Shown here: positions 4,227-26,540 of the stretch, in pieces
Numbering within the stretch: the first letter of the stretch is position 1
Layout of the letters: each line of letters begins with the position of its first letter
From: a virus
Length of the DNA stretch: 32,477 nucleotides
Direction: 5' to 3' (one strand)
Virus record (IMG/VR): IMGVR_UViG_3300010354_000327
Span: 1-32,477 of that record
Notes under the pieces: generated by a model
What the model was told of the DNA's origin: nothing
Database searches by the model: none
What the model saw: the letters and a program-made list of their open reading frames with translations, nothing else
Translations under genes and position numbers: made by a program

Positions 4227-5597
4227 GTGCAACGCTTTATACCGCACGACTATCAAACCGCAGCAATAAACTTGGTGTTACGAAAGCCGAACCTTGCTTT
4301 GTTCTTGGAGATGGGACTCGGAAAGACTGTTATCACGCTATCCGCCATTGCAGAGATGAAGCGCAACGGCGTTATAACAAAGCCCATACTCATTATCGCC
4401 CCACTCCAAGTCGCAAGACACACATGGGCAACGGAAGCAGCAAAGTGGGAGCACACTCACCACTTGCGTGTCGCATGTGTCGTCGGGCGCAAAGCAGAGC
4501 GACAAAAGGCGTTGCTTTCTGATGCCGATATTTACGTTGTAAATAGGGAAAACGCAAAGTGGTTGATGGAATATGCTTTCTCGCTCACAGAAGCCGGTGA
4601 AAAACGTATGCAATTCGATATGCTGGTCATTGATGAACTGAGCGGTTACAAATCGTCGGATACACCGTCGAGGTTTAAGCCACTTAAAGCGTATCGCCAC
4701 AATTTCAAGCGCATAGTCGGACTCACTGGAACGCCGTCGCCGAATGGACTTGCTGAACTATGGTCGCAAATGTACATCATCGATGGAGGCGAGACGCTTT
4801 ACAGCAACGAGTATCGCTTTATGCAACAGTTTTTCATTGTCAACCGTGACAAAGGTTTCCCTGTGATCACGCAAAAGCGTATCGCAGAAACGGAGATACC
4901 CAAACGCATTGAGAAGAATGCTTTTTCTCTCAAAGCGTCGGATTATCTCAACCTTCCCAAGCGCATCGACTTGTTTCACACAGCGTCACCGTCACCATCG
5001 GAGGCAAAGGTGATGAAGGAGAAGCTCAAAGAGTATCTCACGAAAATGCGTGAAACTGGACAAGACGACATGACGATGTTCACGAAAGCGATGCAAGTCG
5101 CAAACGGTGCGATATATGACGCAGACAAGCAGGTTCACATCCTCAGCAATGTAAAGCTAAACGTCATGGAGGAACTCGTCGAATCGGCGAAAAGCCCGTG
5201 CATCGTGTTCTACACGTTTAAGCATGACGCAGAGCGCATAAAAAAGCGTTTCGGTGACATGTGCAGGGAGTTGAAAACGACGCAGGACATCGTCGACTGG
5301 AACAATGGAAACATAGAGATTTTTTTGTTACACCCTGCATCGGCAGGGCACGGACTAAACCTGCAAGCAGGAGGAAATACGATTATATGGTTCGGCTTAA
5401 CGTATAGCTTGGAGCTTTACCAGCAAGCGAACGCCAGACTGCATCGGCAAGGGCAGACAAAGCCAGTCACTGTAAACCACATAATCGCCGAAAACAGCAT
5501 CGATGGTATCGTGGTTGACGCTTTACAGCGCAAAGGAGAAACGCAGGATACACTTATGAAAAGCGTCAAAATGAACATTGAAAAACTGTTGCTATAA
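4227..5597 (+). CDS. SNF2/DEAD-like helicase (superfamily 2)
   Basis: A 456-aa ATP-dependent DNA translocase or helicase of the SNF2 type found in replication modules of many Gram-positive phages. Motif order is complete: the Q-like N-terminus HDYQTAAI, motif I MGLGKT (residues 29-34), motif Ia LIIAPLQV (55-62), motif II DELS (136-139), motif III GLTGTPSPNG (165-174), motif V SAGHGLNLQAG, and motif VI QQANARLHRQGQ near 395-406. GTG at 4227 is the start, 6 nt after the ribosome binding site AGAGGGGG (4213-4220). It probably helps recombination-dependent replication or fork remodelling. It is a transcription unit of its own, between the iteron region and the strong promoter at 5627. Confidence 0.9.
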   Translation: MQRFIPHDYQTAAINLVLRKPNLALFLEMGLGKTVITLSAIAEMKRNGVITKPILIIAPLQVARHTWATEAAKWEHTHHLRVACVVGRKAERQKALLSDADIYVVNRENAKWLMEYAFSLTEAGEKRMQFDMLVIDELSGYKSSDTPSRFKPLKAYRHNFKRIVGLTGTPSPNGLAELWSQMYIIDGGETLYSNEYRFMQQFFIVNRDKGFPVITQKRIAETEIPKRIEKNAFSLKASDYLNLPKRIDLFHTASPSPSEAKVMKEKLKEYLTKMRETGQDDMTMFTKAMQVANGAIYDADKQVHILSNVKLNVMEELVESAKSPCIVFYTFKHDAERIKKRFGDMCRELKTTQDIVDWNNGNIEIFLLHPASAGHGLNLQAGGNTIIWFGLTYSLELYQQANARLHRQGQTKPVTVNHIIAENSIDGIVVDALQRKGETQDTLMKSVKMNIEKLLL

Positions 5598-12337: not shown

Positions 12338-12393
12338 ACGGCATGGATAGCCAGCGCAGGCGACAAGCGTACCCCTTAACGTTTCCATGCCGT
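12338..12393 (+). promoter_or_regulatory. Long inverted repeat between the decoration and glycosyltransferase genes
   Basis: ACGGCATGGA (12338-12347) and TCCATGCCGT (12384-12393) form a perfect 10-bp stem around a 36-nt internal region. No T-run follows, so it is not a standard terminator. A second, imperfect hairpin (GGACA, TTTA, TGTCC with outer GGT/ACC pairs, 12411-12434) lies just before the ribosome binding site. Together they may tune read-through from capsid to glycosyltransferase genes, or mark an mRNA processing site. Confidence 0.5.
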
Positions 12394-12459
12394 ATATATA
12401 AGGGAATCTTGGTAGGGACATTTATGTCCTCACCAAAACACAAAAGGGAGTGTTGCATT

Positions 12460-13101
12460 ATGACAAAAGTTATGATAGGACTTCCAATACATCGACCCAT
12501 TGAATTCAAAGTGTTCGAGTCGTTCATTCGTATGACGAACCAACGAGGAGACATTAAACTAGAGTTTTCAATGGTATCAAACAGCTTGATATACGACGCA
12601 CGAGAGTATGTGGCGGAGCAGTTTATGAAGAGTGACAATGAATATTTGATGTTCATCGACTCTGACATGACGTTTCATCCGCAAAGTCTGCAGTTTTTGC
12701 TACGGCACGACAAGGAGTTCGTCACTGCAAAGGCATTCAAAAGGGTACATCCGTATCAGCCGTGTTTTTATACAAAGGTAGTGTATGAAAACGGCATCCC
12801 TAGTTTGGAAGTGCCTACTGGATATGGTGAAGGATTACTTCCGATTGAAGGCGCAGGGCTAGCATGTGCATTGATTAAGCGATCCGCTTTTGAAAAGCTA
12901 GAAAAGCCATATTTTTTCCCGCTCCCCAACGTTGGGGAAGATTTATCTTTCTGCATCAAGCTGAAAGACGCAGGGGTTAAAATGTATTGCGACACTACGC
13001 TACAATTCGGACATCTTGCGCAACAGGAGATATTCGAAAAACATTTCGTTGATGCGTTTGCGAAGATGGAGCGGGACAAACAGCAGGAGAAAGCACAATG
13101 A
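12460..13101 (+). CDS. GT-A fold glycosyltransferase, family 2-like (first of a pair)
   Basis: A probable sugar-nucleotide-dependent transferase, 213 aa. Key parts: N-terminal strand KVMIGLPIH, the metal-binding DSD motif at residues 67-69 (LMFIDSDMTFHP), GED at 159-161 (candidate base plus helix DLSFCIKLKDAG) and a late histidine in FGH (185). There is no membrane segment, so it acts in the cytoplasm. ATG at 12460 has AAGGGAG 9 nt upstream; an open frame extends to 12343 but lacks a binding site. Sitting inside the head operon, it could glycosylate a virion protein such as the decoration protein, or modify host sugars or DNA. The acceptor is unknown. Confidence 0.8.
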   Translation: MTKVMIGLPIHRPIEFKVFESFIRMTNQRGDIKLEFSMVSNSLIYDAREYVAEQFMKSDNEYLMFIDSDMTFHPQSLQFLLRHDKEFVTAKAFKRVHPYQPCFYTKVVYENGIPSLEVPTGYGEGLLPIEGAGLACALIKRSAFEKLEKPYFFPLPNVGEDLSFCIKLKDAGVKMYCDTTLQFGHLAQQEIFEKHFVDAFAKMERDKQQEKAQ

Positions 13102-16521: not shown

Positions 16522-16844
16522 AACCGCCACGCATCATTGAATTGTGGGCAAACGCCGTCACAGCGTTCGGACTCGCACCACGTGATGCGTGGCGCTTAAC
16601 GTTAAGAGAGTATCACTATTTAAGCAAATCACACGAAGCAGGGGCGAAACGGGAACACTATCGTTTTGCCCTTGTGTGTAGCGTGATTGCAAATGCGCAT
16701 AGGAGTAAAGGCAAACCATTTAAGCCCAATGACTTTATGCCACGAGAGAGACGGAAGAAACAGACATGGCAGGAGCAACTACAAGTGTTACAACAGTTTG
16801 TCGCATCTTACGGAGAAGAGAAACAGGGCGGTGATGAAGCATGA
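16515..16844 (+). CDS. Tail assembly chaperone extension (gpT-like, made by -1 frameshift)
   Basis: The frame entered by the shift, about 108 codons: LKPPRIIELWANAVTAFGLAPRDAWRLTLREYHYLSKSH and so on. The segment with P-x-D-x-W-x-L-T-x-x-E is typical of the T part of gpGT fusions, where G binds the tape measure and T recruits tail tube subunits. There is no start codon with a ribosome binding site near its beginning, which supports expression only as a fusion. The 3' end overlaps the tape measure start by 4 nt (ATGA). Confidence 0.85.
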   Translation, partial: KLKPPRIIELWANAVTAFGLAPRDAWRLTLREYHYLSKSHEAGAKREHYRFALVCSVIANAHRSKGKPFKPNDFMPRERRKKQTWQEQLQVLQQFVASYGEEKQGGDEA

Positions 16845-19675
16845 TACAGGAATTATTCGTGAAGATATCGTCTGACTTCAAGGAGTTAAACAAGGGTTTC
16901 AGCGAGGCATTTCAAAACGCAAAGACTTTCAGTAGCAAAATGGAAGGCTTAACTTCTCTTGGAGATAGCATGAAAAACTTTGGAGCGTCGATGACGGGGT
17001 TTGTCACGCTACCTCTTACGCTTGCAGGTGGAGCGGCGATAAAGCTAGCTAGCGACATGGAGGAAACGCAAAACAAGGTTTCCGTTGCATTCGGCGACTC
17101 GGCGCAAGCGGTGAAGGATTGGTCAAAAACATCTATTCAATCAATGGGATTAGCGCAACAGTCTGCACTTGATGCGGCTGCCTTGTTTGGTGACATGGGC
17201 ACATCGATGGGGATAGCACGAGATGACGCAGCGAAAATGTCAATGGGGTTAACACAACTCGGAGCAGATTTAGCGTCTTTCAAAAACGTTGGTATTGACC
17301 AAGCTATGGGCGCATTGAAAGGCGTTTTCACAGGAGAAACGGACTCACTGACGCAATTGGGATACGTCATGACGGAAACAAACCTCAAAGCTTTCGCAAT
17401 GAGTAAGGGGATCTCCAAAAACGTGGAGGACATGACGCAGGCGGAAAAGGTAAACCTAAGGTTTGCATTCGTCATGGAAGCTACAAAAAATGCGCAGGGC
17501 GACTTTGCACGCACAAGCGAAGGCGCAGCGAATCAAATGCGGATGTTTGGGGAATCACTAAAAGAGCTTGGAGCGAGTTTAGGTGCTACAATTTTGCCGT
17601 TGTTCACAAAGGTTATAAAATTTACCAACGGAATATTACAAGAGTTTATGGGATTATCGGAAGGAACAAAAAAAGTCATCATCGGTGTAGGTGCTTTTGC
17701 GCTTGCATTGGGTCCAGTGATTGTAGGGATCGGAGCTGTTTTAGCAGCGTTGCCACTGATGACAACAGGGTTCATGATGGTTATCCCTGCTGTAAAAGCC
17801 CTTGGAGTAGCACTAAGTTTTCTTGCGTTGAATCCGATAGGAATGGTTATAACAGCGATTGGGGCACTTATTGCAGCAGGGATTTATTTATCGAAAGGCT
17901 GGGGCGAAACGCATGCTAAAATGTTAAAAATCAGCACAGCCATTTCATATGCGGTAGAAAAGGCATTATCTCACGCTAAGACAGCAGCGTTGTTTGCAAT
18001 CGATAAAATTTTAGCAGGGCTGAACTTGATTCTTAAATTCGTTCCAGGGTTTAAAGATAAGGTTGATACATTGCGAAAGTCTTTGTCCACCATGATGGGT
18101 GACGAATCAATAAAGCGTCAAAGCGAAGCGGTGAAGTATGCGTCTGACCAAGCTGGATTATCAATGATTGCGGCGTCTTATGCTGCCGAAAAAGCGCGGC
18201 AAAAAACAAAAGCGTTGGCAGATGATCTTAAAACCTCAAAAGACGTATCCGTTACGTACGATGACGGTATGAAAAGACTTACGGAAAGCATCGCAAAAGC
18301 AACGGCAATAAAAGATAAGGCAACCACTGCCGAAAAGAGTAACAAAAAATCAATTGATGCAACAACGGAATCACTAAAAAAAGCAAGAGAAGCTGAGAAT
18401 AAGCGTGCCAAGGAACAGTATGAAAACACGGTTACACAGCTTGACAAACTCGGCGCAGCGATAATGGAAGCGTTGAGAAAACGGTATGCGGCGCAGGAAA
18501 AAACGGAAATTGCGTTTCTAGTTTCTCAAAAGGATAGGGAAAAAGCTGGTTTAAACGAGTCTTTGGCTACTCTTAAACGTGGATATGATGAGCAAGTAAA
18601 AGCATTAAAGTCGAAGCACCGCCAAGAGGTCGACGCAATCACATCAGCGCAAAAGCAAAAAATACAAATCATTGACGCCGAAACGATGGAGCAAGTCAAC
18701 GCTTTACAAGCGCAGATTGATGGAATAAGAGGACTAACAAAAAGCGAAGAAAAACAGCTTGAAGAGCAGGCGTATAACACTAAAATTGCCGAACTGCAAA
18801 AAGAAGTGCTCGCCGCCAAATCAGCGGAGGAACGCTTAAAAGCGCAAGCTAGACTTGATGACGAGATACAAAAGCGTCAACGTGAATTGCTGTTGAACGA
18901 ACGTTCTATGCAAATTGACGCACTAGAAAAGCAGATGGAAGCTATTCGCAACAACGCCGATAAACGCAAAGAACAAATAAACATTCAAACTGAAACAGAA
19001 TTAAGCGCACTTGAAACACGTTTAGAAAACGAACTTGTTGCGCAGGAGCAGTTGTATATCGCTAGTGAAACAGCGTTGCAACAAAAGTTGGAACAAACAG
19101 AACGTTTTTACGAATCGGAAATAGAAGCTACTCGCTCAAAATTCGAAACGTTGACGAGCGATGAAAAGTTGTTTGAGGAGTCAAGGCGACTAGCACTAAG
19201 AGAGAATCAGGATGAACTGATAAACCTACTCAACGAATACAATCCGAAGTGGCAGGATGCAGGGCAAAGTTTCGGGCAGAGCATGCTAAACGGGTTGAAT
19301 TCAATGAAGTCAAGCATACAACAAACGGTCAACGAGATACTGGGCATGGTCGGCAAGATTGAAAACGAGAAACGCTATTTGCAGGGATTAATTGAACAAG
19401 GGAAGCAAACGGGAAACACTGGGTTGGTGAATTGGGCAAAACAGCAAGGCAGTTTACTCGGCGTGCCGTTTCTCGCAGATGGCGGGATCATCACGTCGCC
19501 AACGCTAGCAATGGTTGGTGAGGCAGGAACCGAAGCGGTTATCCCTCTCAATCGCCTAAACGATTTTGGCGGAGCGAAAGAGACAAATATATACCTTGAT
19601 GGACGCAAAATAACAGGAGTACTCGCTCCAACGATGGTGGACATGATACGTGGCAGGGTAGGGAGTGCATACTGA
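16841..19675 (+). CDS. Tape measure protein
   Basis: A 944-aa protein that sets tail length; at roughly 0.15 nm per residue the tail would be near 140 nm (inference). The N-terminus has MKNFGASMTGFVTLPLTLAGGAAIKLASDMEE and the AFGDSAQAVKDWSKTSIQSMGL repeat-like region. Hydrophobic segments lie near residues 280-350 (IGVGAFALALGPVIVGIGAVLAAL and following), which may insert in the host membrane. Long charged coiled coils cover about 480-820. The C-terminus ends in FLADGGIITSPTLAMVGEAGTEAVIPL, the standard end of Gram-positive tape measures. No peptidoglycan hydrolase domain was recognised. Confidence 0.95.
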   Translation: MIQELFVKISSDFKELNKGFSEAFQNAKTFSSKMEGLTSLGDSMKNFGASMTGFVTLPLTLAGGAAIKLASDMEETQNKVSVAFGDSAQAVKDWSKTSIQSMGLAQQSALDAAALFGDMGTSMGIARDDAAKMSMGLTQLGADLASFKNVGIDQAMGALKGVFTGETDSLTQLGYVMTETNLKAFAMSKGISKNVEDMTQAEKVNLRFAFVMEATKNAQGDFARTSEGAANQMRMFGESLKELGASLGATILPLFTKVIKFTNGILQEFMGLSEGTKKVIIGVGAFALALGPVIVGIGAVLAALPLMTTGFMMVIPAVKALGVALSFLALNPIGMVITAIGALIAAGIYLSKGWGETHAKMLKISTAISYAVEKALSHAKTAALFAIDKILAGLNLILKFVPGFKDKVDTLRKSLSTMMGDESIKRQSEAVKYASDQAGLSMIAASYAAEKARQKTKALADDLKTSKDVSVTYDDGMKRLTESIAKATAIKDKATTAEKSNKKSIDATTESLKKAREAENKRAKEQYENTVTQLDKLGAAIMEALRKRYAAQEKTEIAFLVSQKDREKAGLNESLATLKRGYDEQVKALKSKHRQEVDAITSAQKQKIQIIDAETMEQVNALQAQIDGIRGLTKSEEKQLEEQAYNTKIAELQKEVLAAKSAEERLKAQARLDDEIQKRQRELLLNERSMQIDALEKQMEAIRNNADKRKEQINIQTETELSALETRLENELVAQEQLYIASETALQQKLEQTERFYESEIEATRSKFETLTSDEKLFEESRRLALRENQDELINLLNEYNPKWQDAGQSFGQSMLNGLNSMKSSIQQTVNEILGMVGKIENEKRYLQGLIEQGKQTGNTGLVNWAKQQGSLLGVPFLADGGIITSPTLAMVGEAGTEAVIPLNRLNDFGGAKETNIYLDGRKITGVLAPTMVDMIRGRVGSAY

Positions 19676-22231: not shown

Positions 22232-23416
22232 ATGGCTATGGGCGACACAAACGTCGGCGGCGGTGTTTTTGCAAAAGTCGACTATAACATCACTGGCGGG
22301 CTTGCAATAAAAAGAGAAACGGCAACTAGTTTAAGCGTAGCGAGGTACGCGTTAGCAGCGACAAGTGTAGGAAATTATGCGCTTTTTGGCGGTGGAGAAA
22401 CGCCTTCTTCTAGCGCAACGATTGATGCCTACGACACGTCGCTTGTGAGGACAACGCCGACAGCATTAAGCGTAGCGAGAGCTAATTTAGCAGCGACAAG
22501 AGTAGGAAATTATGCGCTTTTCGGCGGAGGAAACACAGGCTCTTCTAGCGCAGTAGTTGATGCATACGATACCAGTTTAGTAAGGACAACGCCAACAGCA
22601 TTAAGTGTGGCTAGGAATTTTTTAGCGGCGACAAGTGTAGGAAATTATGCGCTTTTCGGTGGGGGTGTTTTTTCCGCAACTGTCGATGCTTACGACACGT
22701 CGCTTGTGAGGACAACGCCAACAGCACTAAGCGTAGCCAGGTACTATTTAGCAGCGACAAGCGTAGGAAATTATGCGCTTTTTGGCGGTGGGTATACGCC
22801 TTCTTCTAGCGCAACCGTTGACGCATATGACACGTCGCTTGTGAGGACGACGCCAACTGTACTGAGTGTAGCAAGGTACTTCTTAGCAGCGACAAGTGTG
22901 GGCAATTATGCACTTTTTGGTGGAGGTAGGGATGCTGCTTCTAGCGCAACGGTCGACGCATATGACACGTCGCTTGTGAGGACGACACCAACAGCATTAA
23001 GCGTAGCGAGAGCGATACTTTCTGCAACTAGCGTAGGAAATTACGCTTATTTTGCGGGAGGACAACCGACGGCTGGTTCATCAACTGCCTCATCTACAGT
23101 AGACGCTTACGACGCATCGCTTGTACGCAGTACACCGCCAACGATGACGGTTCAGAGAGCGTATCTTGCTGGAGCAACAATTGGAAACTATGCGCTTTTT
23201 GGTGGTGGTTCGGACGCATTTGGAAACACTGGAACAATCACAAGTGTTGTTGACGCATATTCCGCTACGTTGCGCATTCCAATACCCGCAGGCTCAAAAC
23301 ACCAATTTTCCCCTGCTACAACTGAAACGACAGTTGGCACACAAACTACAATAACTTTATCCGCTCCCATAAGTGGCTATGTAAAACATCGCAAGGGAAC
23401 AATCACCGCTATATAA
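22232..23416 (+). CDS. Kelch-like beta-propeller tail fiber (probable receptor-binding protein)
   Basis: A 394-aa protein with three parts. The N-terminal cap (MAMGDTNVGGGVFAKVDYNITGG) is followed by seven Kelch-like repeats of 42-50 residues, each built as LSVAR-x-x-LAATSVGNYALFGGG, a variable loop, then DAYDTSLVRTTPTA. The C-terminal domain (IPIPAGSKHQFSPATTETTV to KGTITAI) ends the protein. Seven blades would close a propeller. Repeats are nearly identical in DNA except after VAR and after GGG, the loops expected to face outward. GGGGGTGA (22218-22225) is the ribosome binding site. Sugar or protein receptor binding is an inference from the fold and location. Confidence 0.85.
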   Translation: MAMGDTNVGGGVFAKVDYNITGGLAIKRETATSLSVARYALAATSVGNYALFGGGETPSSSATIDAYDTSLVRTTPTALSVARANLAATRVGNYALFGGGNTGSSSAVVDAYDTSLVRTTPTALSVARNFLAATSVGNYALFGGGVFSATVDAYDTSLVRTTPTALSVARYYLAATSVGNYALFGGGYTPSSSATVDAYDTSLVRTTPTVLSVARYFLAATSVGNYALFGGGRDAASSATVDAYDTSLVRTTPTALSVARAILSATSVGNYAYFAGGQPTAGSSTASSTVDAYDASLVRSTPPTMTVQRAYLAGATIGNYALFGGGSDAFGNTGTITSVVDAYSATLRIPIPAGSKHQFSPATTETTVGTQTTITLSAPISGYVKHRKGTITAI

Positions 23417-24481: not shown

Positions 24482-24942
24482 TACTATACACGTTGAAACA
24501 GTTTACAACGGATACAAGCCATTTGTATGCGTCTGATGAGACACTGAAAAGCATACATGACGCATGCAACCAACAGGAAATATACGACGCATGTAAATCG
24601 GTATATACGGTGGTGCACTTTAACCGTGAAGAGCCGTTCCTCACACAATCTCCAGAAATCATCGAGTCATCGTATCAATTGCAAGATGGACAATCACTGT
24701 ATGCGGTGCTCAAAAGTGGAGTGATACACAGTATCGTTGTCACGGACGACACCCCCGCTCCACACAGCCAAAGCGTTATAGGCGATTTAGCTAAAAGTGA
24801 TGCAATTGAACAAATTAAATCAACACTTGTTTCACAGGTTCAGTTGAATCACGATGCATACACATCTACCCTTAGACAACAAGCAGAAGAGTCTGCACAT
24901 GAAACACTAGTTATGGAATTAATTGAAAGGGGTGTTTTGTAG
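24478..24942 (+). CDS. Hypothetical tail-cluster protein (154 aa)
   Basis: Not recognised. It begins as a small alpha/beta unit (MILYTLKQFTTDTSHLYASDET, YTVVHFNREEPFLTQS) and ends in a long helix (NHDAYTSTLRQQAEESAHETLVMELIERGVL). It has the XkdW-like layout (small domain followed by an XkdX gene), which makes a virion role likely. It is joined by ATGA to the gene before and by TAGTG to the gene after. Confidence 0.65.
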   Translation: MILYTLKQFTTDTSHLYASDETLKSIHDACNQQEIYDACKSVYTVVHFNREEPFLTQSPEIIESSYQLQDGQSLYAVLKSGVIHSIVVTDDTPAPHSQSVIGDLAKSDAIEQIKSTLVSQVQLNHDAYTSTLRQQAEESAHETLVMELIERGVL

Positions 24943-25223
24943 TGCCGATTGTAAATATTCTTAGAAAATTATACGTTAAAAACTTGTTTTCATTGGAAAA
25001 GCTAGAAAAGTTTTATGCGGATGGTCACATTACAGCTGCCGAAAAAAAATATATTTTGACTGGAAGTTATGACGAAGTGCAGGAAGTGCAGGAAGTGCAG
25101 GAAGTGCAGGAAGTGCAGGAAGTGCAGGAAGTGCAGGAAGTGCAAGAAGTGCAGGAAGTGCAGGAAGTGCGGGAAGTGGGTGACACCGATGATGTTGCGG
25201 CTGGGGAAAACGATAGTAAATAG
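24942..25223 (+). CDS. XkdX-like protein with an (EVQ)n tail (93 aa)
   Basis: Residues 1-42 (IVNILRKLYVKNLFSLEKLEKFYADGHITAAEKKYIL) have the XkdX helix pair and K/G-x-I-T-x-x-E-K-x-x-IL pattern. The rest is twelve tandem tripeptides: ten EVQ, then EVR and EVG, encoded by 9-bp units GAAGTGCAG (25074-25181), followed by an acidic end. The tail is expected to form an extended or helical spacer of changeable length. GTG at 24942. The last 35 nt overlap the lectin-fold gene, so the pair is coupled; the repeat may act as a linker or assembly handle for that protein. Confidence 0.75.
   Translation: MPIVNILRKLYVKNLFSLEKLEKFYADGHITAAEKKYILTGSYDEVQEVQEVQEVQEVQEVQEVQEVQEVQEVQEVREVGDTDDVAAGENDSK
25074..25181. 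repeat. 9-bp minisatellite (GAAGTGCAG)x12
   Basis: Twelve units, nine perfect; unit 8 is GAAGTGCAA (silent), and the last two are GAAGTGCGG and GAAGTGGGT. In the used frame it encodes EVQ; in the next frame it would encode KCR. Unit length is a multiple of 3, so copy number can change without a frameshift. Confidence 0.95.
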
Positions 25224-26061
25224 CAGTGGCATTGTGACGGTGAGCTTTGGACAGACGATGGCACTCGTCCCCGCATCATTGATTACGTCTATGCCGATTG
25301 GTAGCGTGGAGACAATCACAAGCGTGTCAATTCCGAACTTTTACATTGGAGCAATGGAGGTGACGGGTGCGCTCTGGAGTGAAGTGCGGACGTGGGCATT
25401 AGCGAACGGGTATACGGGTATAAACCAAGGAACGAATGCAGGCAGCACGACGTTGCCGATTGCGAGTGTGCGTTGGTACGACGTCGTCGTGTGGTTGAAT
25501 GCGTATTCGGAGCGGACGGGACTCGTGCCCGTGTATCGGGACAGCAATGGGGATGTGTTGAAGGATGGGACAGCGACAAGCACACTTGACAGTGCGGTGC
25601 AAATAAATTCAAACGGCTATCGGTTGCCGACAGCAAATGAGTGGGAAATGGCGGCAAGATGGTTGGGGACGACACCGCCGACGGTGGGCAGTCTTGCTAC
25701 ACAACGCATTGCGACCGTGAACAACGGGGTGACGTATTATTGGACGCCAGGAAACTATGCGAGTGGGGCAACGGAAAACACAGGCAACGCCACAGAGACG
25801 CAAGCGGTGGCGTGGTACAGTGCAAACAGTGGCGGGGCTGCGAAAGCGGTGGGAGGCAAACGTGCAAACGCATTGGGCATGTACGACGTGAGTGGGAACG
25901 TGTGGGAGTGGCAGTTTACGTCGACGGGGGGGATAAACCGTGGGATCCGGGGCGGTAGCTGGGGCAATGACAGCAGCTACATGATCGTAAGCAGCGTCTT
26001 CAGCCACGCACCGAGTAACATCTACACGAGTATCGGCTTCCGCTTAGCGAGGACGCAGTAA
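25189..26061 (+). CDS. C-type-lectin/FGE-sulfatase-fold tail adhesin; candidate DGR variable protein
   Basis: A 290-aa protein. Residues 1-45 form a virion-attachment region; the rest is a formylglycine-generating-enzyme-like (CLec) domain: FYIGAMEVTGALWSEV, NGYRLPTANEWEMAARW, GMYDVSGNVWEW, then IRGGSWGNDSSYM and IGFRLARTQ at the end. This is the architecture of many diversity-generating retroelement targets. Between Trp (25960) and Ile-Gly-Phe-Arg, 15 of 23 codons end in C (GGC, GAC, AGC, TAC, ATC, GTC, TTC, CAC and others), as expected if AAC codons were mutated at A. ATG 25189 (or 25192) follows GGGTGA; the frame stays open upstream through the minisatellite as KCR repeats, which I reject. 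The gene is more GC-rich than its neighbours. Confidence 0.8.
   Translation: MMLRLGKTIVNSSGIVTVSFGQTMALVPASLITSMPIGSVETITSVSIPNFYIGAMEVTGALWSEVRTWALANGYTGINQGTNAGSTTLPIASVRWYDVVVWLNAYSERTGLVPVYRDSNGDVLKDGTATSTLDSAVQINSNGYRLPTANEWEMAARWLGTTPPTVGSLATQRIATVNNGVTYYWTPGNYASGATENTGNATETQAVAWYSANSGGAAKAVGGKRANALGMYDVSGNVWEWQFTSTGGINRGIRGGSWGNDSSYMIVSSVFSHAPSNIYTSIGFRLARTQ
25957..26058 (+). other. Putative variable region (VR) of a diversity-generating retroelement target
   Basis: The last 34 codons of the lectin-fold gene, from GGSW to the end. Codons in the exposed loop are dominated by NNC triplets, while the flanks (GGT AGC TGG; ATC GGC TTC CGC) encode the conserved fold. No reverse transcriptase, Avd gene or template repeat is present elsewhere in the window. 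Confidence 0.5.
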
Positions 26062-26114: not shown

Positions 26115-26540
26115 GTGGAACACATTTTAACAAAAGTAAACGTTAATCGTGTGGGGGTGAGTATCGCTATGGCATCGATTTTTGCCACAGTAACGGCGGT
26201 TTTTGGAGAAATAACACAGATTCATAAGCTACTTTTCGCAGTGATGCTGCTAGACTACATCAGTGGTGTATCGGCTGCCATCGTGAATAAAAGTGTATCA
26301 TCGAAAAAGGCACACATTGGCGTTATAAAAAAAATATCCATTGTCGCACTAGTAGCGTTCGCTCATCAAGTTGACATCTATTTGGGAACATATGTTGTGT
26401 GCACAGGGGTTATAGCGTTTTTCATAGCAAATGAGTTTATGAGTGTAATAGAAAACTATAGAAACATTGGCTTACCAGTACCTGATAAACTCGTAAAAGT
26501 TATGGACGTATTCGCTAAAACGGAAAACAAAAATGGATAG
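26115..26540 (+). CDS. Holin (TcdE/holin_4-like)
   Basis: A 141-aa membrane protein that times lysis by opening the cytoplasmic membrane. Four hydrophobic segments: VSIAMASIFATVTAVFG (15-31), LLFAVMLLDYISGVSAAIV (40-58), ISIVALVAFAHQVDIYL (74-90) and VVCTGVIAFFIANEFMSVI (94-112). The D-Y-x-S/T-G motif after the second segment is typical of the phage holin family that includes TcdE. The GTG start at 26115 is 5 nt from AGGAGGGG (26102-26109). It is followed by a membrane-anchored protein and an amidase, a complete lysis cassette. Confidence 0.88.
   Translation: MEHILTKVNVNRVGVSIAMASIFATVTAVFGEITQIHKLLFAVMLLDYISGVSAAIVNKSVSSKKAHIGVIKKISIVALVAFAHQVDIYLGTYVVCTGVIAFFIANEFMSVIENYRNIGLPVPDKLVKVMDVFAKTENKNG

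What the first reader, a model, noticed from the sequence alone, without database searches (positions are those of the whole stretch)
25189..26061. Candidate DGR variable protein: lectin-fold tail adhesin ending in a run of NNC codons
The gene has the FGE/C-type-lectin domain order of known diversity-generating retroelement targets, and ends RGGSW ... IGFRLAR. Between the conserved Trp and Ile-Gly-Phe, 15 of 23 codons are NNC (GGC, GAC, AGC, TAC, ATC, GTC, TTC, CAC), what AAC codons become when both A positions are randomised. It sits in the fiber cluster, where receptor diversification would matter.
Basis: partly seen in the sequence, partly recalled or inferred. Interest (0 to 1): 0.75.

Follow-up and report, generated by a model that had tools for sequence, protein, structure and literature searches.

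The report
Phage adhesin captured from bacterial retroelement
This phage carries an exchangeable tail-adhesin gene whose closest known relative is a bacterial protein diversified by a mutation-making retroelement; the phage itself shows no sign of that machinery, so the variable tip was probably written by a bacterial retroelement, either still acting on it or before the gene was captured.

Summary
The protein has the FGE/C-type-lectin fold; its best PDB match is TvpA, a known DGR variable protein. A phage-encoded DGR is not supported: no reverse transcriptase, Avd or template repeat lies in the record, and a circularly complete collinear relative has no RT or Avd and carries a different protein in the same slot. 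New evidence supports the DGR link all the same. The nearest homologues lie in a Paenibacillaceae MAG; without the VR, the window protein is sister (97/94) to the variable protein of a complete chromosomal DGR (VP, Avd, RT, TR; VR/TR differ at 10 A and no non-A positions) that has a second VR on another contig. The window's NNC excess (z 5.9) falls among members with a located template (4.4-8.1). Best reading: an orphan DGR variable protein captured as a tail adhesin. Diversification in trans is plausible, not shown: no matching template was found.

The parts
25180..26061 (+).
   Evidence: PF03781 E 1.1e-23; AlphaFold2 pLDDT 92.9, best PDB match TvpA 2y3c Z 29.3, rmsd 2.2 A over 233 residues; N-terminal VTPM..LGK.IV shared with the gene in the same slot of G001
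25948..26043 (+). DGR-type variable region RGGSW-GNDSSYMIVSSVFSHAPSNIYTS-IGFR
   Evidence: 15/23 NNC; aligns without gaps to the template repeats L154:5413-5511 and the L205 TR; fixed positions S4, V9, S10, V12, A16, P17 shared with the L154 VP
24942..25223 (+). small gene upstream (phrog_134) overlapping the adhesin start, with an (EVQ)n tail encoded by a 9-bp repeat; left edge of the exchangeable slot
26115..26540 (+). holin gene (PF05105), right edge of the exchangeable slot
   Evidence: collinear in G001, L200, L202
31672..32477 (+). 5' part of a B12-dependent ribonucleotide reductase gene cut off by the contig end; with the contig start it brackets about 2.1 kb missing from the record
   Evidence: blastn to G001 and G009, which join the two ends through 2.1 kb without an RT

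Best explanation
The gene is an orphan DGR variable protein. A tail-adhesin slot of this siphovirus-like phage has taken up an FGE/C-type-lectin domain from a family of bacterial proteins that are targets of chromosomal DGRs. The variable C-terminal segment displays the binding residues. Its NNC pattern was written by mutagenic retrohoming from an AAC-rich template by an RT that this phage does not encode. Shown: fold, family, sister relation to a cassette variable protein, codon signature, exchangeability of the slot, absence of RT, Avd and TR in the record. Inferred: that it acts as an adhesin and that a DGR wrote this VR. Not shown: whether a host DGR still rewrites it in trans or whether it is a frozen captured variant; I consider these about equally likely.
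For: (1) NNC 15/23 against 21% in the gene, p 1.4e-5, or 8e-4 with amino acids controlled. (2) Calibration over 33 family members: those with a located template have z 8.1 (L154), 7.2 (L153), 4.4 (L077); the window has 5.9; none of the 23 members from z 2.9 downwards has a template found. (3) Closest relatives by body are in Paenibacillaceae MAG REEB470: L153 50-54%, L154 44-52%. L154 is a complete DGR: VP; Avd (NF033474 over its cut-off); RT with GLPIGNLTSQ and YMDD; TR at 5413-5511; VR/TR differ at 10 TR adenines and at no other base. (4) Tree without the VR: window + L154, support 97/94. (5) L153, on another contig, is a second VR of the same TR (12 A and 3 non-A differences of 99), so the DGR of this lineage evidently acts on unlinked targets. 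(6) VR fixed positions shared with the L154 TR, and differences to the L205 TR enriched at its adenines (20/38 against 18/61, p 0.019). (7) The slot holds unrelated proteins in G001 and L200 and nothing in L202. (8) No cysteine at all, so not an active FGE enzyme, which uses cysteines (active-site requirement from general knowledge). (9) Top structural match is the DGR protein TvpA; TaqVP and Mtd also match.
Against: No template matching this VR in IMG/VR, 84,980 genomes, or 395 genomes of the MAG's order with 3 mismatches. The window VR differs from the L154 TR at 27-28 non-A positions of 99, so that DGR did not write it. The downstream hairpin is a 5-bp stem, weaker than the 7-10 bp GC-rich stem with GRNA loop described for phage DGRs in PMC3240598, though L154, L153 and L077 lack one too. 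No population variation could be examined. Several high-z members also have no template found, so the calibration rests on three positives.
Confidence: 0.7

Rival explanations
1. Ordinary non-DGR lectin adhesin: the C-ending codons are chance or local codon bias in an FGE-fold tail protein.
For: No RT, Avd or TR in the phage record; no RT or Avd in its complete relative; no template in the public collections searched. With amino acids controlled, other stretches of the phage reach a similar z of about 3.5. Many FGE relatives of this family have ordinary VR codons, for example L155 with 4/24.
Against: p 8e-4 at a site fixed beforehand; z 5.9 lies with template-bearing members; sister to a cassette variable protein.
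Confidence: 0.2
2. The phage carries its own DGR in the part missing from the record.
For: About 2.1 kb are missing between the contig ends.
Against: In both collinear relatives that stretch is 2.1 kb and holds the rest of a ribonucleotide reductase gene plus small ORFs, with no RT. In the one DGR of this family with all parts on one contig, the RT and TR lie within about 5 kb of the target; here both flanks of the target are syntenic with the relative and free of them.
Confidence: 0.03
3. Frozen capture (a sub-case of the best explanation): the VR was written by a DGR in a bacterial donor, then moved into the phage slot, and no DGR acts on it now.
For: No matching template found; the slot exchanges whole domains; weak downstream hairpin.
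Against: No direct evidence either way; the NNC pattern has not visibly decayed, so capture would be recent.
Confidence: 0.35

Closest known systems
Chromosomal DGR of Paenibacillaceae MAG REEB470 (JAGWXQ010000024.1, locus L154)
   Same: FGE/C-type-lectin variable protein, same VR register and shared fixed residues; window protein is its sister (97/94)
   Different: Has Avd, RT and TR next to the target, on a contig with ctsR, an ATP:guanido phosphotransferase gene (mcsB-like) and a clpC-like gene; the phage gene has none and its VR does not match that TR
TvpA, Treponema denticola DGR variable protein (2y3c)
   Same: Same fold (Z 29.3, 32% identity over 233 residues), C-terminal VR ending GFRLA
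   Different: Cellular protein with its own DGR (from the literature); sequence identity low
Mtd of Bordetella phage BPP-1
   Same: C-type-lectin receptor-binding protein of a phage with a C-terminal VR; structural match (Z about 12.5)
   Different: Phage-encoded RT, Avd, TR and downstream hairpin in BPP-1 (PMC3240598 and general knowledge); none found here
Remote variable proteins of cyanobacterial DGRs (PMC7517822)
   Same: Targets lying away from the RT
   Different: In the cell's own genome; here the target is in a phage record

Membership tests
DGR variable protein | C-type-lectin (FGE subtype) fold with C-terminal variable segment | tested here: met
DGR variable protein | VR codons of AAY origin (NNC/NNT) above gene background | tested here: met
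   15/23 NNC, 18/23 NNY; z 5.9
DGR variable protein | Template repeat differing from the VR at adenines | tested here: not met
   none in the window, none in IMG/VR or genome contigs by exact pattern, none in 395 genomes with 3 mismatches; metagenomes not searched, the window's 2.1 kb gap unseen, and the window's own record probably excluded from the scans
Complete DGR in this phage | Reverse transcriptase | tested here: not met
   no RVT_1 in the window or 14 related records; 2.1 kb of the window's genome unseen
Complete DGR in this phage | Avd accessory protein | tested here: not met
   bAvd absent from the window, G001 and G009; found in G103 as control
Complete DGR in this phage | GC-rich 7-10 bp hairpin with GRNA loop downstream of the VR (phage DGRs, PMC3240598) | tested here: not met
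   5-bp stem only; the template-bearing members L154, L153 and L077 also lack it, so weakly diagnostic
DGR variable protein | Population variation confined to AAY-derived codons | not testable with these tools
   no second copy of the gene in the collections allowed; reads not available
Formylglycine-generating enzyme | Active-site cysteines | tested here: not met
   the protein has no cysteine

The most novel reading that the evidence does not exclude
An RT-less phage uses a DGR of its host in trans: it has domesticated a target of the host's retroelement as tail adhesin, so the host's own diversifier retargets the phage.
Probability: 0.3. Interest if true: 0.85.

Novelty: new variant of a known kind. 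Interest (0 to 1): 0.5.

Why it matters
The phage DGRs described in the papers read here carry RT and template beside the target, and the large survey PMC8144416 states that its method would miss DGRs acting on remote targets. A phage adhesin that is sister to the variable protein of a chromosomal DGR suggests that DGR targets move between cells and phages without the machinery, and makes it testable whether a cellular DGR can diversify a phage in trans. The same scan hints that orphan DGR-type VRs are common in viral contigs: only 1 of 79 FGE-bearing records has an RT, though many of these records are fragments.

Tried and rejected
Template search in the window, both strands, A-tolerant: best candidates have 28 non-A mismatches of 102 and lie in a run of shifted hits in the A-rich gene 16841-19675. 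Template pattern scans of IMG/VR (two halves of the VR), of genome contigs (3' half), and of 395 genomes of the MAG's order: nothing. The L154 TR as template of the window VR: rejected, 27-28 non-A mismatches. The L205 TR (Acholeplasmataceae M50B101): closer, 18 non-A mismatches, but not the template; no VR of the L205 TR was found in the G109 loci held. Host search by portal: only about 31-35% matches in seven genomes of the MAG's class, not decisive; portal not found in the 12 MAGs with FGE relatives. Tetranucleotide comparison does not tie the phage to any of these MAGs (r 0.22 to 0.55 with cellular loci). The host is therefore unknown; the holin and endolysin argue for a walled host (inference). 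Direct search with P0001 in IMG/VR found no close copy.

Full report
Observation. The gene at 25189-26061 (probably from GTG 25180) encodes an FGE-sulfatase/C-type-lectin protein whose C-terminus reads RGGSW-GNDSSYMIVSSVFSHAPSNIYTS-IGFRLAR. 15 of the 23 codons between W and I are NNC, against 55/267 elsewhere in the gene (p 1.4e-5); with amino acids fixed p is 8e-4 (phage usage) or 1e-4 (gene usage). A few other stretches of the phage reach a similar controlled z, so this statistic alone is not proof.

No DGR in this phage. The record is an IMG/VR virus contig with no RVT_1, no bAvd and no template repeat. A collinear relative, G001, is circularly complete (its ends overlap on the window map) at 33.6 kb; together with G009 it shows that the window lacks only about 2.1 kb, which in G001 holds the rest of a ribonucleotide reductase gene and small ORFs; neither relative has an RT. 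The window gene lies in a slot between a small phrog_134 gene and the holin gene; in G001 that slot holds an unrelated 282-aa protein with the same N-terminus, in L200 a longer version of that type, in L202 nothing.

Relatives. In 84,980 genomes the nearest homologues lie in Paenibacillaceae MAG REEB470 (L153, L154, L155 and others; about 20 FGE domains in 1.4 Mb) and in Izimaplasma/Acholeplasmataceae MAGs. L154 is a complete chromosomal DGR: FGE variable protein, Avd (NF033474, over cut-off), RT (GLPIGNLTSQ, YMDD), template repeat at 5413-5511, on a contig with ctsR, an ATP:guanido phosphotransferase gene and a clpC-like gene. Its VR differs from the TR at 10 positions, all template adenines. 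L153, on another contig, carries a second VR of the same TR (12 A and 3 non-A differences), a remote target. In a tree without the VR the window protein pairs with L154 at 97/94. A second cellular DGR-type RT with an AAC-rich TR of the same register was found in Acholeplasmataceae M50B101 (L205).

Calibration. Across 33 family members, NNC excess over the gene's own background is z 8.1, 7.2 and 4.4 for the three with a located template, 5.9 for the window, and 2.9 or less for 23 members in which no template was found; the remaining six, at 3.8 to 7.1, lie in records without an RT. Fixed positions of the VR (S4, V9, S10, V12, A16, P17) are shared with L154, and the differences from the L205 template are enriched at its adenines (p 0.019).

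Structure. The AlphaFold2 model (pLDDT 92.9) matches TvpA best (Z 29.3), then CarF, PvdO and FGE; TaqVP and Mtd also match. The protein has no cysteine, so it is not an active FGE enzyme (with general knowledge of the enzyme).

Conclusion. Shown: an exchangeable phage tail-region protein of DGR-target ancestry with a DGR-like VR, and no DGR parts in the record. Inferred: it is an adhesin and its VR was written by a DGR outside the phage. Open: whether a host DGR still acts on it. No matching template was found in the collections searched; those scans probably exclude the window's own record, and metagenomes could not be searched.

Noticed in passing
25074-25178: 9-bp tandem repeat GAAGTGCAG (11.7 copies) encoding (EVQ)n at the end of the gene 24942-25223; absent from the relative G001.
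   Followed up: partly
22352-23013: Imperfect repeats of about 135 bp in the kelch-like fiber gene 22232-23416; relatives have similar repeat proteins that differ in sequence.
   Followed up: no
12340-12404: Match to Rfam int-alpA RNA (RF02996, 41.4 bits) just after the capsid genes, overlapping the start of the gene 12343-13101.
   Followed up: no
L154:1-5511; L153: Complete chromosomal DGR in Paenibacillaceae MAG REEB470 with a remote second target, in a MAG with about 20 FGE domains.
   Followed up: yes
L205 (G109:C192): RT with a GLPIGNLTSQ motif and an AAC-rich template repeat in Acholeplasmataceae MAG M50B101; its target was not found in the loci held.
   Followed up: partly
L074-L152: Of 79 IMG/VR records with FGE genes only L077 has an RT, yet many have NNC-rich VRs, some in arrays of several variable proteins (L075/L076, L114-L152).
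   Followed up: partly
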